Below, one piece after another: positions 24,495 to 34,078 of a stretch of 64,000 nt of DNA; within the stretch, counting starts at the first letter, position 1; each line of letters starts with the position of its first letter. Under the pieces are notes generated by a model. It was not told the origin of the DNA. It worked only from the letters and a program-made list of their open reading frames with translations, and made no database searches. The stretch is from NCBI GenBank assembly GCA_025060615.1, contig JANXBS010000010.1, forward strand, positions 62,001 through 126,000, in the 5' to 3' direction. This stretch comes from Anaerolineae bacterium (GTDB taxonomy: Bacteria; Chloroflexota; Anaerolineae; DUEN01). The position numbers and the translations under genes are program-made.

Positions 24495-26568
<2,074 letters not shown>

Positions 26569-26576
<8 letters not shown>

Positions 26577-27422: not shown

Positions 27423-27778
27423 GTAGTCTCCCTCTTTCGTAAGATCCAGCATCAGGCCCTTCTTCACCTAGGCTCTTGAACCGCGTGCGGCAAACTCTGC
27501 GCCGAAAACATCGCTCCTACTCGAAAACGGCTATGACATCCGCTCCCCCAAACCCAGCCTAGACGGCCAGCGGCTCTTCGGCTATAATGCGTACAGGATG
27601 TGGCTGAGCTCTGGGACGATCGCCAGGAGATGGCGTCTCAGCTAACGTCTGGAACCAGACCCCCCTTCATATCGTCTTATGATGCGCAAGCGTTAAAGAT
27701 GAGGAGAGCGATCCTGCCCGCTCCCGACAGAACAGCTTCCACCCACTCGATGATGTGCTTTCCAAGGAGGAAATCGCG
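27423..27778. other. Leader region before the alpha-2-macroglobulin gene
   Basis: No gene is supported here. A TATAAT box at 27583-27588 could be a -10 element for the downstream gene, but no good -35 box is found 16-18 bp upstream. The AAGGAGG ribosome site at 27764-27770 belongs to the following gene. Confidence 0.4.
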
Positions 27779-30700
27779 ATGCATCTTACCCGTTCACTTC
27801 CACGTATGCTGATCCTCTTTATAGTTATCCTTCTGGCCGCGTTGCCCGTGCTGAGCGGCTGTGCCCCACGCCGAGCCGCGCGCGCAGAGGCCCCACCGGC
27901 CAGCCCGCCAGCAAACCCTATTGCATCATCAGAAACCTCCAGTCAGACAGTTCCCACTCGCTTCGGAGCCTGCCTATGTGATACCGAGGCGCAAATGGCC
28001 ATGGCCGCCCCGCGTAACCAACTGCCTCCCACCGTTGTGGCCATCAGCCCTGAGCGTGGCGAGGAACAACGGCTCAACGCGCCCCTCGTCATCACCTTCG
28101 ACCAGCCTATGGACCCGGCCACTACAGCCGCCGCCTTTCACATCGAGCCACCCGTAGAAGGTCAAGCCACCGTCATGGGCAAGACGCTCACTTTCCAGCC
28201 CGCCCAGCCTTGGCCACGGGCGACCGCTTTCAAGGTGACGGTGGACGCAACAGCCAGAGGGCTTAACGGGCTGACTCTAACGGCGCCGTTTGAACATCGC
28301 TTCACCACGGTGGGCTATCTAGAGGTAACTAGCGTCCAGCCAGCCGATGGCGCCAGCGATGTGCCCACCGATACGTCCATCACCATTGTCTTCAACCGGC
28401 CAGTAGTGCCGCTGACGGGCGTTGAAGAGCAGGCTGGCCTTCCTCAGCCACTAAAGCTGGAGCCAGCGATCACAGGGAGAGGCGAATGGCTCAATACCAG
28501 CATCTACACCTTTCGGCCCAGCGAACCGCTGGCTGCCACCACCCGCTACACGATCACCGTTCCCGCCGGCCTCACCGACCATACGGGCGGCATTCTGGCT
28601 CAGGACTATACCTGGACCTTCACCACGACCAGCCCGATCGTGGTGAACATGGCACCTACCACCGATCAAGTCCCGCCCACCTCACCCATCACCATCACGT
28701 TCAGCCAACCGATGGACCCTGCCAGTACCGAGGCAGCTTTCTCCCTGCGTACAGCTAAGGACAACGTCCCCGTCGAGGGGATGTTTACCTGGCAGGACGA
28801 AGGGCGAACACTGGTCTACCAGCCCAAACAGCCGCTCGCCTACGGCGCAGGATACGTGGTCAACGTGGATAAGACTGCTCGTCCGGCGCGCGGCGAGGGG
28901 ACGCTGCGTCAAGCTACGCGGTTCAGCTTCCGCGTCGTCCGTCTGCCCGGTGTGCGCTCGACCACCCCCAAGGATGGTGATCAGGCGGCGGATCCATATG
29001 GCGCGATGGAGGTCACCTTCCACAGTCCTATTGACCCGAATACCTTGGGGCCAGGAGCTATCCGGGTCGAGCCGGAACCGACGCAGGTGTACACCTGGTA
29101 TAACGAGTATGAGAGCCGGCTCATCATCTCTTGGGAACGCCAGCCGCGCACCGCCTACACCGTCACCCTGGGCAGCCAAATCGGCGACCGCTACGGCAAC
29201 ACGCTGGGCAGGGACGTGGTGATCCGCTTCCGCACCCGTGACTACGATCCGATGGCCTACCTGGGCGGGTTTGGTCCCATAGGCACTTATAACGCCTACA
29301 CCCGAACGATCGCCACCGCCAGCTACCGCAACGTCAGCCGGCTCGACTTCGGCCTATATCAGGTGAATGAAACCACCTTCCTCAGCCTAACCGGTGAGCA
29401 GAGCTGGGATGCCTGGCAACGTCTGAAACTGGACGAGGCAGCCCTGTTGAACCAGTGGTCGGTAGACGTAAGCCCACCTCCCAACGTGATCCGCACCTGG
29501 CAAGGCCCGCTGACCGACTCCGAAGGGAAGCCACTGCCGCCCGGCCTCTATCTGTTGGAGCTACGCGCGCCCGAGATCCGATATAGCCCGGACCGCTTGC
29601 CCTCGCGCCAGTTGTTGATAGTCTCTCGCCTAAACATCTCCCTGAAGCACACCGACACTGAGGCGCTGACATGGGTCACGGATCTGAAGACGGGCGAGCC
29701 GGTTGCCGATCTGCCGCTCCGCCTACTAGATGGCCAGGGGCTAGAGATAAGCGGGCGGACCGACGCGCAGGGGGTGTTCCGCACGACCTTCGAGCAACGG
29801 GACTACTGGAAGCCGCTGTACATCTTCGCCGGCCAGCTCGGCGCCGATGATTTCGCTGTAGTCCTGAACCAGTGGAGCAACGGCATCAGCCCGTGGGAGT
29901 TCGGGCTCAACGTAGAGATGTACAAACAGCCGCTGAACGCTTACCTCTACACTGATCGCCCCATCTATCGGCCTGGCCAGACCGTGCACTGGAAGGCCAT
30001 CCTCCGCTGGGACGACGACGCCCGCTACTCCCTGCCCGCGGCCGGAATGCCGGTCACCATCACGGTCAACGACTCCTTCGGCAATCAAGTGCTCCAGGAG
30101 CGGAAGTCGTTGAGCCCGCTGGGCACCGTCTACGGCGATTTCACCCTGGCCCCGGAGGCCTCGCTGGGATGGTACAACATTGACCTGCAGGTCATCCTGC
30201 CGGAGCTGCCGCCAGAGCGCCGCGAGCAGCACTACAGCGTCGGCTTCCAGGTCGCCGAATACCGCAAGCCAGAGTACGAGATCAGCGTGACCACCGAACG
30301 CCCCGAGTATGTCCAGGGCGACATCATTACCGTCACCGCTAAGGCCAACTACTTCTTCGGCGGGCCGGTCAAGGACGCTGAGGTGCGCTGGTCGCTCTTG
30401 AGCTGGGACTATTTCTTCAATTATCAAGGCGAGGGGTGGTACAGCTTCCAGGACTTCAAGGGATGGGACTACTACCGCCCCGAGTACTACCGCTTCGGCG
30501 AGCCGCTAGCCCAGGGTCAGGGCAAGACGGACGCCGAGGGGCAGTTCACCTTCTCGGTTCCAGCCGACATCGCCGACCGCGACCAATCGCAGACGTTCAC
30601 TTTCGACGTGCGCATCACGGACGTCAACGGCCAGGAGGTCGCCGGCTCCGCTGCGGCTGTGGTGCATAAGGCCGCGATCTACGTGGGCCTCTCGCCGCGG

Positions 30701-33700
30701 GAGTATGTCGGGACCGTGGGCGAGCCCAACCACGTGGACCTGATCACCGTGGACCCGCAGAGCCAGTCCATCGCCTCCGTCCCGGTGACCATAGTCGTCT
30801 CGCTGGCCAAATGGTACAGCGTGCAGGAAAAGAGCGACGACGGTCGCTTTTACTGGACCAGTAAGGTCGAGGAGACGCCGGTGCTCACCCGCACGTTGAC
30901 TACCGACGCCCAAGGCCGGGCGACGCTGACCTGGACGCCCACGGCTGGCGGCCAATACCTGGTGCGCGCCCGCGCTGAGGACGAGAGGGGCAATGCCACG
31001 GCCAGCGCCGTCTTCGTGTGGATTAGCGGCCGTCTCGGCGAGTTCGTCCCCTGGCGCATGGAGAGCAACGATCGCATCAACTTGGTGGCCGATAAGAAGG
31101 AATACCAGGTGGGCGACACAGCGCAGGTGCTGGTGCCATCGCCTTATCCGGGGCCGGTCTGGGCGTTGCTCACTATCGAGCGCGGCCACATCCTGTCGCA
31201 TCAGGTGATCACGCTCACCAGCAACAGCCAGACCCTCTCGATCCCCATCCTCAGCGAGTTCGCCCCCAACATCTTCGTCAGCATCCTGATCGTCCAGGGA
31301 CAGGACGAGCAGAATCCGCTGCCGTCGTTCAAGCTCGGTTATGTCGAGCTGCCGGTCTCCACGGCTGAGAAAGAGTTGCAAGTCACGCTCCGCCCTAACG
31401 CGGCCGTGGTGGCCCCGCGCTCGCCAGTGACGTACACCATCGAGGTGCGCGATCACGTCGGCCGTCCGGTGAAGGCCGAGCTGTCACTGGCGTTGGTGGA
31501 CAAGGCAGTGCTGACGCTGACCGATCCCAACGTGGAGCCGATCCTCGATCGCTTCTACCGCAAGCGCGGCCTCGGGGTGAACACGGCACTAGGCTTGGCG
31601 ATCAACCTAGATCGTCTGGTGCAGCAGCAGGTCAAAGGCACTAAGGGCGGTGGCGGCGGCCCTGGCGAGGGCCCCACCGTGCGCCGCGAGTTCCCGGACA
31701 GCGCACTGTGGGCCCCGGCGGTGCAGACGAATGAGCAAGGCCGCGCCCAAGTGAGCCTGGTGCTGCCGGACAACCTGACCACCTGGCGCCTGATCGGGAA
31801 GGGCGTGACGGCGGAGACGCTGGTCGGGGAGGCTACGGTGGACATCGTCGCCACCAAAGAGCTGCTGGTGCGGCCGGTAGCCCCGCGCTTCTTCGTGGCA
31901 GGCGACGCGGCGGATGTGGGCGCAGTGGTGCACAACACCACGAAATCCGACCAGCAAGTGGAGATCACCTTCACCGCGCAGGGGTTAAGCGTGGATGGCC
32001 CGGCGCGCCAGGCCATCACCGTCGCCGCGGAGTCCGCGGTGCGCGTGGACTGGCCGGTGCGCGTCCAGCCGGGCAACCAGGCCGTGTTGCTCTTCGACGC
32101 TCGCTCTGGCGAGCTGAGCGACGCAGTGGAGATCACCCTGCCGGTATATCGTTATACCACGCCGGAGATCGTAGGGACCAGCGGCGAGGTGGCCGCTGAC
32201 GAGGCCCGCCTGGAGGTGGTCCACGTGCCGGCAGGCGCTCAGCCAAATCAGGGCGAGCTCACGGTGATGCTCGAGCCGACGCTGGCGGCCAGCATGTTGC
32301 CTGGGCTGCGCTATCTAGAGCACTATCCCTACGAGTGTACCGAGCAGGTGCTCTCCCGTTTCCTGCCCAATGTGCTCACATATCAGGCGATGAAGCGGCT
32401 GGGAATCGAGCGGCCCGACCTGGCCGAGAAGCTATCGCATCAGTTGGGGATCGGTCTACAGCGTCTCTACAGCCGCCAGAACGTGGATGGGGGCTGGGGC
32501 TGGTGGTATGGCGAGAGGAGCAACCCGTTCATCAGCGCTTACGTGGTCTTCGGGTTGGTGCAGGTGAAAAAGGCAGGCTTCAGCGTGGACGAGGACATCC
32601 TCGACCGCGGCATCCGCTATCTGCATCTGCAGCTTCAGGCTCCGGCGAAACTCCAAGGCTACGCGCTCAACCGGCAGGCATTCATGATCTACGTGTTGGC
32701 AGATGCGGGTCGTAACGTGATGAGCCAGGCAGCGACACTCTACGAAGAGCGAGAACGCCTGGCCCTCTATGGTCGAGCTTTCTTGGCTCTAGCGTTTGGC
32801 GTGATGGACGCCGAAGGGCAGCGTGCCCGTATTGACACGCTCATCAGCGATCTGACGGGCCGGGCCGTGCTCAGCGCCACCGGCGCTCATTGGGAGGAGG
32901 CGGGAACACCGGACTACTGGACGATGAACACCGACGTGCGCACCACCGCTGTTATCCTGGACTTACTCGCCCGTTTCGGGTCCACCGGAGGGATTGCACC
33001 CAATGCGGTGCGTTGGCTGATGAACGTGCGTAAGGACGGGCACTGGGAGACCACGCAGGAGACCGCCTGGTCGCTCATCGCGCTTACTGACTGGATGCTG
33101 GCCACCGGTGAACTAGAGGGGGACTACTCCTGGCGCGTGCGCCTGAACGACGAAGATTTGGGCCAAGGAGCCGTAAACCGCGATAACCTGGACGATCCGG
33201 TTGTGCTCAAGACGGAGATAGCCCGGCTGTTGCTAGACCAGGCCAATCGCCTGAGCATTGAGCGATCTACGGCAGAGGGGCAAACTGGCCGCGGCCGGCT
33301 GTACTACACGACCCATCTACAGTACTACCTGCCGGTAGAGTCCATCCAGCCCCGCGACCGCGGCATCGTCATCGCCCGCCGCTATACCCTGACCGATGAT
33401 CCGCAAAAGCCGATCACCCAGGCCAAAGCGGGGGATGTGATCCAGGTCGAGCTGACCATCGTAGCCCCTAACGATCTGCACTACCTGGTGGTAGAAGACC
33501 CGTTGCCGGCCGGCGCAGAGGCGATAGACGTCAGCCTGCGCACCACCAGCCGGATGTATCAGGGGCCGCAGATGGAAGAAGTCCCGTCTGAGGAGGAGGC
33601 ACAGAGCTGGTGGTGGGATCGCTGGGTACCTACGCATACGGAACTGCGGGATGAGAAGGTAGTGCTGTTCGCCACCTGGCTGCCGCGTGGTACCTACCGG

Positions 33701-33826
33701 TACACATATCAGATCCGCGCGAGCCTGCCCGGCCGGTACCTGACGCTGCCAGCTACAGCCTACCAAATGTACTTCCCAGAGGTGTGGGGACGCAGCGCTG
33801 GCGGGGTGTTCACCATTGTCCGGTAA
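27779..33826 (+). CDS. Alpha-2-macroglobulin family lipoprotein with thioester motif
   Basis: Very large exported protein, 2015 residues from the ATG at 27779 (the frame opens at 27755, but AAGGAGG at 27764-27770 fixes the start). The N-terminus is a lipoprotein signal with lipobox LSGC near residue 28. Four Ig-like Big_5/SbsA-type repeats follow (each with an ITFDQPMDP-like strand) to about residue 490, then macroglobulin MG domains (YIYTDRPIYRPGQTVHWK-like segment near 730), an A2M domain (ALWAPAVQTNEQGRAQVSL) and the complement-like helical domain. The thioester motif is YECTEQ with Cys1520 and Gln1523, so covalent trapping of proteases is likely. In proteobacteria these proteins are often coupled to PBP1C; no such gene is adjacent here. 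Confidence 0.93.
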   Translation: MHLTRSLPRMLILFIVILLAALPVLSGCAPRRAARAEAPPASPPANPIASSETSSQTVPTRFGACLCDTEAQMAMAAPRNQLPPTVVAISPERGEEQRLNAPLVITFDQPMDPATTAAAFHIEPPVEGQATVMGKTLTFQPAQPWPRATAFKVTVDATARGLNGLTLTAPFEHRFTTVGYLEVTSVQPADGASDVPTDTSITIVFNRPVVPLTGVEEQAGLPQPLKLEPAITGRGEWLNTSIYTFRPSEPLAATTRYTITVPAGLTDHTGGILAQDYTWTFTTTSPIVVNMAPTTDQVPPTSPITITFSQPMDPASTEAAFSLRTAKDNVPVEGMFTWQDEGRTLVYQPKQPLAYGAGYVVNVDKTARPARGEGTLRQATRFSFRVVRLPGVRSTTPKDGDQAADPYGAMEVTFHSPIDPNTLGPGAIRVEPEPTQVYTWYNEYESRLIISWERQPRTAYTVTLGSQIGDRYGNTLGRDVVIRFRTRDYDPMAYLGGFGPIGTYNAYTRTIATASYRNVSRLDFGLYQVNETTFLSLTGEQSWDAWQRLKLDEAALLNQWSVDVSPPPNVIRTWQGPLTDSEGKPLPPGLYLLELRAPEIRYSPDRLPSRQLLIVSRLNISLKHTDTEALTWVTDLKTGEPVADLPLRLLDGQGLEISGRTDAQGVFRTTFEQRDYWKPLYIFAGQLGADDFAVVLNQWSNGISPWEFGLNVEMYKQPLNAYLYTDRPIYRPGQTVHWKAILRWDDDARYSLPAAGMPVTITVNDSFGNQVLQERKSLSPLGTVYGDFTLAPEASLGWYNIDLQVILPELPPERREQHYSVGFQVAEYRKPEYEISVTTERPEYVQGDIITVTAKANYFFGGPVKDAEVRWSLLSWDYFFNYQGEGWYSFQDFKGWDYYRPEYYRFGEPLAQGQGKTDAEGQFTFSVPADIADRDQSQTFTFDVRITDVNGQEVAGSAAAVVHKAAIYVGLSPREYVGTVGEPNHVDLITVDPQSQSIASVPVTIVVSLAKWYSVQEKSDDGRFYWTSKVEETPVLTRTLTTDAQGRATLTWTPTAGGQYLVRARAEDERGNATASAVFVWISGRLGEFVPWRMESNDRINLVADKKEYQVGDTAQVLVPSPYPGPVWALLTIERGHILSHQVITLTSNSQTLSIPILSEFAPNIFVSILIVQGQDEQNPLPSFKLGYVELPVSTAEKELQVTLRPNAAVVAPRSPVTYTIEVRDHVGRPVKAELSLALVDKAVLTLTDPNVEPILDRFYRKRGLGVNTALGLAINLDRLVQQQVKGTKGGGGGPGEGPTVRREFPDSALWAPAVQTNEQGRAQVSLVLPDNLTTWRLIGKGVTAETLVGEATVDIVATKELLVRPVAPRFFVAGDAADVGAVVHNTTKSDQQVEITFTAQGLSVDGPARQAITVAAESAVRVDWPVRVQPGNQAVLLFDARSGELSDAVEITLPVYRYTTPEIVGTSGEVAADEARLEVVHVPAGAQPNQGELTVMLEPTLAASMLPGLRYLEHYPYECTEQVLSRFLPNVLTYQAMKRLGIERPDLAEKLSHQLGIGLQRLYSRQNVDGGWGWWYGERSNPFISAYVVFGLVQVKKAGFSVDEDILDRGIRYLHLQLQAPAKLQGYALNRQAFMIYVLADAGRNVMSQAATLYEERERLALYGRAFLALAFGVMDAEGQRARIDTLISDLTGRAVLSATGAHWEEAGTPDYWTMNTDVRTTAVILDLLARFGSTGGIAPNAVRWLMNVRKDGHWETTQETAWSLIALTDWMLATGELEGDYSWRVRLNDEDLGQGAVNRDNLDDPVVLKTEIARLLLDQANRLSIERSTAEGQTGRGRLYYTTHLQYYLPVESIQPRDRGIVIARRYTLTDDPQKPITQAKAGDVIQVELTIVAPNDLHYLVVEDPLPAGAEAIDVSLRTTSRMYQGPQMEEVPSEEEAQSWWWDRWVPTHTELRDEKVVLFATWLPRGTYRYTYQIRASLPGRYLTLPATAYQMYFPEVWGRSAGGVFTIVR

Positions 33827-33864
33827 GTGGACATCAAAAGCCTTGGCGATGATAGACTGACAAG

Positions 33865-33900
33865 CAAGGCGCCTTGGACATGAGCGTTCAAGGCGCCTTG
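33865..33900. repeat. Two copies of a 12 bp palindrome forming a long hairpin
   Basis: CAAGGCGCCTTG occurs at 33865-33876 and again at 33889-33900, with 12 bp between. Each copy is itself a perfect palindrome, and together they can form a 12 bp stem with a 12 nt loop. It lies between the stop of the macroglobulin gene and the 3' end of tRNA-Sec, so it may end both convergent transcripts, although neither side has a run of T. Confidence 0.7.
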
Positions 33901-33923
33901 CGGGGATCAGCACTATGGGATAG

Positions 33924-34017
33924 CGGGAGTGGATGGGAGTCGAACCCACCGTGGCCGCTGCGAGCGCCCACCACCGGTTTTGAAGACCGGGGGACTCACC
34001 GGAATCCAGCCACTCCC
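33924..34017 (-). tRNA. selC: tRNA-Sec (anticodon TCA)
   Basis: 94 nt. The acceptor stem has 8 bp (GGGAGTGG with CCACTCCC), longer than in ordinary tRNAs, with discriminator G. The D loop contains TCCGGTGAG exactly as in E. coli tRNA-Sec, the anticodon loop is CTTCAAA with TCA at 33981-33983, the variable arm is long (about 24 nt), and the T arm is TGGG-TTCGACT-CCCA. All these are hallmarks of selenocysteine tRNA. CCA is not encoded. selA, selB and selD are not in the window. Confidence 0.95.
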
Positions 34018-34050: not shown

Positions 34051-34078
34051 ATTGTAGCAAAACGCTGGCAAATGGCAA
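34051..34078 (-). promoter_or_regulatory. Promoter of tRNA-Sec
   Basis: TTGCCA (34078-34073), 16 bp, TACAAT (34056-34051) on the minus strand. The start would lie near 34044, giving a 5' leader of about 27 nt before the mature tRNA. Confidence 0.5.

What the first reader, a model, noticed from the sequence alone, without database searches (positions are those of the whole stretch)
33924..34017. Selenocysteine tRNA gene present without other sel genes nearby
All hallmarks of tRNA-Sec are visible (8 bp acceptor, TCA anticodon, D-loop TCCGGTGAG, long variable arm). The genome should therefore encode selA, selB, selD and at least one selenoprotein with in-frame TGA. Sec use is uneven in Chloroflexota, so this is informative.
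Basis: partly seen in the sequence, partly recalled or inferred. Interest (0 to 1): 0.6.

Follow-up and report, generated by a model that had tools for sequence, protein, structure and literature searches.

The report
Ordinary selenocysteine tRNA, working partners elsewhere
The stretch is a normal, intact bacterial gene for the tRNA that inserts selenocysteine, the 21st amino acid; the rest of the machinery and at least three probable selenoproteins lie on other pieces of the same genome, as in most of its relatives.

Summary
The tRNA-Sec is real. ARAGORN and Rfam RF01852 (76.5 bits, cut-off 47) find it on the minus strand, 33924-34017. It has the bacterial 8+5 acceptor/T-stem, a 6-bp D-stem, TCA anticodon, long variable arm and G73. 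Across 21 class-level sequences 99% of predicted pair cells hold and 19 of 32 pairs covary. A sigma-70-like promoter and a 13-bp hairpin flank it. No other sel gene was found on its contig, but the genome (97.8% complete) has selA, selB and selD on three other contigs. It also has three genes with an in-frame TGA at the known redox-active position: SelD itself, a formate dehydrogenase alpha subunit, and a peroxiredoxin-like protein (UxxC motif). Separation of the sel genes is normal here: in 34 well-assembled class members no selA lies within 15 kb of another sel gene, and only two other pairs do. tRNA-Sec was found in at least 147 of 199 genomes sampled from the class. Sec use in Anaerolineales and all three selenoprotein families are already published. 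Verdict: observation confirmed, interpretation supported, nothing new in kind; low interest. Decoding of the UGAs as Sec is inferred, not shown.

The parts
33924..34017 (-). selC: tRNA-Sec(UCA), 94 nt including discriminator G73; CCA not encoded
   Evidence: ARAGORN, RF01852 76.5 bits; conservation and covariation in 21 sequences; sequence of the ends
34051..34078 (-). sigma-70-like promoter TTGCCA-16-TACAAT with extended TG, upstream of the tRNA; consensus match only
   Evidence: 10 of 12 matches; 1 found against 0.2 expected in shuffles
33864..33901 (.). 13-bp hairpin between the 3' end of the tRNA and the converging A2M gene; terminator-like but without a T-run
   Evidence: fold -29.2 kcal/mol for the 64-base stretch; not called a terminator by the scan

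Best explanation
This is a functional bacterial selC gene. It is probably transcribed from its own promoter, matured and given CCA by the host enzymes, charged with serine by SerRS, converted to Sec-tRNA by SelA with selenophosphate from SelD, and delivered by SelB to UGA codons followed by a SECIS hairpin in at least three mRNAs (SelD, formate dehydrogenase alpha subunit, a peroxiredoxin-like protein). Shown here: the gene, its conserved structure, the partner genes and the in-frame TGAs at the known active-site positions. Inferred: transcription, charging, and decoding of the UGAs as Sec. The dispersed placement of the sel genes is the normal arrangement in this class.
For: tRNA. Partners: selA 592 bits, full length; selB 329.6 bits with GTPase and SelB winged-helix domains PF09106 and PF09107; selD 374.9 bits. 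Selenoproteins: SelD TGA in AACAG-U-ASK, aligned to the E. coli-type SelD active-site Cys in 3u0o, with the same CAGUA(S/A/G)K motif in many relatives. FdhA TGA in NVDNCARL-U-HSPT, aligned to the Cys of the formate dehydrogenases 9wxb and 6tg9, above the TIGR01591 cut-off. Prx-like TGA in GFS-U-PFC, a UxxC motif in PF00578, as listed for Prx-like selenoproteins in PMC13188914. Class-wide co-occurrence: selA over cut-off in 166, selB in 160, selD in 163 and tRNA-Sec at 60 bits or more in 147 of 199 genomes.
Against: No expression, charging or proteomic data. SECIS hairpins were only folded singly, without shuffle controls or comparative support. The genome is a 73-contig assembly, so linkage across contig ends cannot be excluded.
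Confidence: 0.97

Rival explanations
1. The tRNA is a relic of a lost Sec system.
For: No sel gene on the same contig; no gene neighbours shared with the same-family relative G086.
Against: All three partner genes are full length and three TGA-containing genes are present; the window tRNA fits a structure maintained by covariation in the class.
Confidence: 0.01
2. It is a long-arm tRNA-Ser or a UGA suppressor misread as tRNA-Sec.
For: RF01852 also scores a tRNA-Ser of this genome above its cut-off (C4, 50.1 bits, called tRNA-Ser by ARAGORN).
Against: 76.5 bits against 50.1 for the best tRNA-Ser; 8-bp acceptor, 6-bp D-stem with 4-base loop, TCA anticodon, conserved in the class together with selA and selB.
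Confidence: 0.01
3. The contig carrying the tRNA is a contaminant and the Sec genes belong to different organisms.
For: Draft assembly, 2.9% contamination, each sel gene on its own contig.
Against: The tRNA is closely similar to that of the same-family genome G086; selA is 78% identical to SelA of the Caldilineae MAG J4; the same set occurs across the class.
Confidence: 0.02

Closest known systems
Bacterial tRNA-Sec (Rfam RF01852, selC)
   Same: Full-length model match, 8+5 acceptor/T-stem, 6-bp D-stem, UCA anticodon, long variable arm, G73
   Different: Nothing of note; CCA not encoded; the variable stem is interrupted by one mismatch
Bacterial Sec insertion system (SelA/SelB/SelD)
   Same: All three proteins found above the curated cut-offs
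   Different: Genes lie on separate contigs instead of a selAB(C) cluster, as in most sampled class members
Selenoprotein FdhA of Anaerolineales (PMC4959059)
   Same: Sec-type formate dehydrogenase alpha subunit in the same broad lineage
   Different: A further genome; this FdhA has an N-terminal NuoG-like iron-sulphur extension

Membership tests
bacterial tRNA-Sec (RF01852) | covariance-model score above gathering, full length | tested here: met
   76.5 against 47 bits, positions 1-91
bacterial tRNA-Sec (RF01852) | 8-bp acceptor plus 5-bp T-stem, 6-bp D-stem, long variable arm | tested here: met
   99.0% of pair cells standard, 19 of 32 pairs with changes on both sides in 21 sequences
bacterial tRNA-Sec (RF01852) | UCA anticodon and discriminator G73 | tested here: met
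   anticodon bases and G94 (=G73) invariant in the alignment
Sec insertion system | selA, selB and selD in the genome | tested here: met
Sec insertion system | at least one selenoprotein gene with TGA at the redox-active position | tested here: met
   SelD, FdhA, Prx-like
Sec insertion system | SECIS hairpin just downstream of UGA | tested here: inconclusive
   single-sequence folds give short hairpins about 15-32 nt after UGA in fdhA and 14-27 nt in selD; no comparative test
Sec insertion system | Sec actually inserted | not testable with these tools
   needs mass spectrometry or selenium-75 labelling

The most novel reading that the evidence does not exclude
The Sec trait and a Sec-containing SelD are ancestral and near-universal in this class, with the sel genes scattered around the genome; the few genomes with a Cys-SelD mark losses or degenerating systems. 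The presence counts support this, but ancestry was not tested with a tree.
Probability: 0.6. Interest if true: 0.25.

Novelty: already known. Interest (0 to 1): 0.12.

Why it matters
It settles a simple question: the tRNA belongs to a complete, probably working selenocysteine system, so automatic annotation of this genome may truncate or miss at least three redox enzymes (SelD, formate dehydrogenase, a peroxiredoxin-like protein). Beyond that it is routine.

Tried and rejected
The AhpD-like family PF02627 gave no match. Among five molybdopterin oxidoreductases only the C3 one has a TGA; among seven AhpC/TSA proteins only the C6 one. Genes flanking the tRNA were not found around the tRNA-Sec of the same-family genome G086, so there is no conserved neighbourhood to interpret. 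In 23 class genomes with a TGA-containing SelD no tRNA-Sec was found even with a more thorough search; I take this mainly as draft-assembly loss and did not resolve it. A relic and a misread tRNA-Ser were considered and rejected.

Full report
Observation. ARAGORN and Rfam agree on a tRNA-Sec on the minus strand. The gene has 8 acceptor pairs, a 6-bp D-stem closed by a 4-base loop, a 5-bp anticodon stem with CTTCAAA loop, an 8-pair variable stem interrupted by one mismatch, and a 5-bp T-stem. An alignment with 20 tRNA-Sec genes from the same class gives 99.0% standard pairs over 671 cells (shuffled mean 85.1%) and two-sided changes at 19 of 32 pairs; sliding the partners by 1-3 columns drops pairing to 47-57%. 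This is a maintained structure, not a chance fold. The best tRNA-Ser of the same genome reaches only 50.1 bits with the same model, which also shows that the Rfam cut-off of 47 does not separate Ser from Sec in this lineage; I used 60 bits for counting, because the class-wide scores listed show a gap between 60.2 and 54 bits.

Surroundings. The tRNA has a good sigma-70-like promoter (TTGCCA-16-TACAAT) and a strong 13-bp hairpin downstream. It sits between a bacterial alpha-2-macroglobulin gene that converges on it and, on the other side, an HxlR-type regulator, a metallo-beta-lactamase-fold protein, a JAB-domain protein and an FKBP-type isomerase. None of these is a selenium gene, and the neighbourhood is not shared with the same-family genome G086.

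Partners in the genome. The window is C10:62001-126000 of a 73-contig assembly, 97.78% complete. selA is on C12, selB on C2 and selD on C21, each the only place in the genome above the curated cut-off of its family. SelA has both SelA domains, and SelB has the GTPase, beta-barrel and winged-helix domains.

Selenoproteins. Three genes carry one in-frame TGA at the position where homologues have the redox-active Cys or Sec: SelD (AACAG-U-ASK, aligned to the SelD active-site Cys of 3u0o), FdhA (NCARL-U-HSPT; TIGR01591 813.9 bits) and a Prx-like protein (GFS-U-PFC; Pfam AhpC-TSA 112.4 bits; nearest NCBIfam model SelL-related redox protein, 91.3 bits, below its cut-off of 120). Short hairpins follow the UGA in single-sequence folds; this is weak evidence for SECIS elements. 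A complete selenoprotein list was not possible.

Class-wide picture. In 199 genomes drawn from the class, tRNA-Sec (60 bits or more) was found in 147, selA over cut-off in 166, selB in 160 and selD in 163. Nearly all full-length SelD matches listed carry one TGA. G107, whose SelD has no TGA, also lacks selA, a selB above cut-off and a tRNA-Sec, as expected for a lineage that lost Sec. In 34 well-assembled genomes (hand-copied coordinates) selA is never within 15 kb of another sel gene; only one selB-selC pair (5.1 kb, G017) and one selB-selD pair (5.9 kb, G067) are close. So a lone selC is the rule here. Two less contiguous genomes, G091 and G093, have selC next to selB.

Literature. Sec-type formate dehydrogenases and Sec elongation factors are reported in Anaerolineales single-cell genomes (PMC4959059), and FdhA, SelD and Prx-like UxxC proteins are established or confidently predicted prokaryotic selenoprotein families (PMC13188914).

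Verdict. Observation confirmed, interpretation supported, ordinary biology. What remains inferred is the decoding itself.

Noticed in passing
class genomes G023, G058, G087, G111, G151 and 18 others: SelD gene has an in-frame TGA but no tRNA-Sec was found in the assembly; most likely draft-assembly gaps, but a few are 95% complete or more.
   Followed up: partly
L100:1500-1592 minus (G030:C1): A divergent tRNA-Sec (53.2 bits, ARAGORN anticodon at position 32, shorter D arm) in a genome that has selA and selB but a SelD without TGA; it was counted as absent by the 60-bit rule.
   Followed up: partly
window 24495-26576 minus: P-type metal ATPase with an N-terminal metal-binding domain and CSCS where the usual CPC transport motif is expected (ACSCSFALATP), next to an ArsR-type regulator gene; read by eye from the translation.
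   Followed up: no
window 27755-33826 plus: 2023-aa bacterial alpha-2-macroglobulin with several Big_5 domains and a CTEQ thioester-like motif (YECTEQ).
   Followed up: partly
L067 (G093) and G091:C69:113515-114940: selC lies directly beside selB in these two genomes, an exception to the dispersed arrangement.
   Followed up: no
Rfam RF01852 on this lineage (L002:1501-1586): The gathering score of 47 bits lets tRNA-Ser through (50.1 bits for a tRNA-Ser(TGA) of this genome), so raw Rfam hits overcount tRNA-Sec in these genomes.
   Followed up: yes
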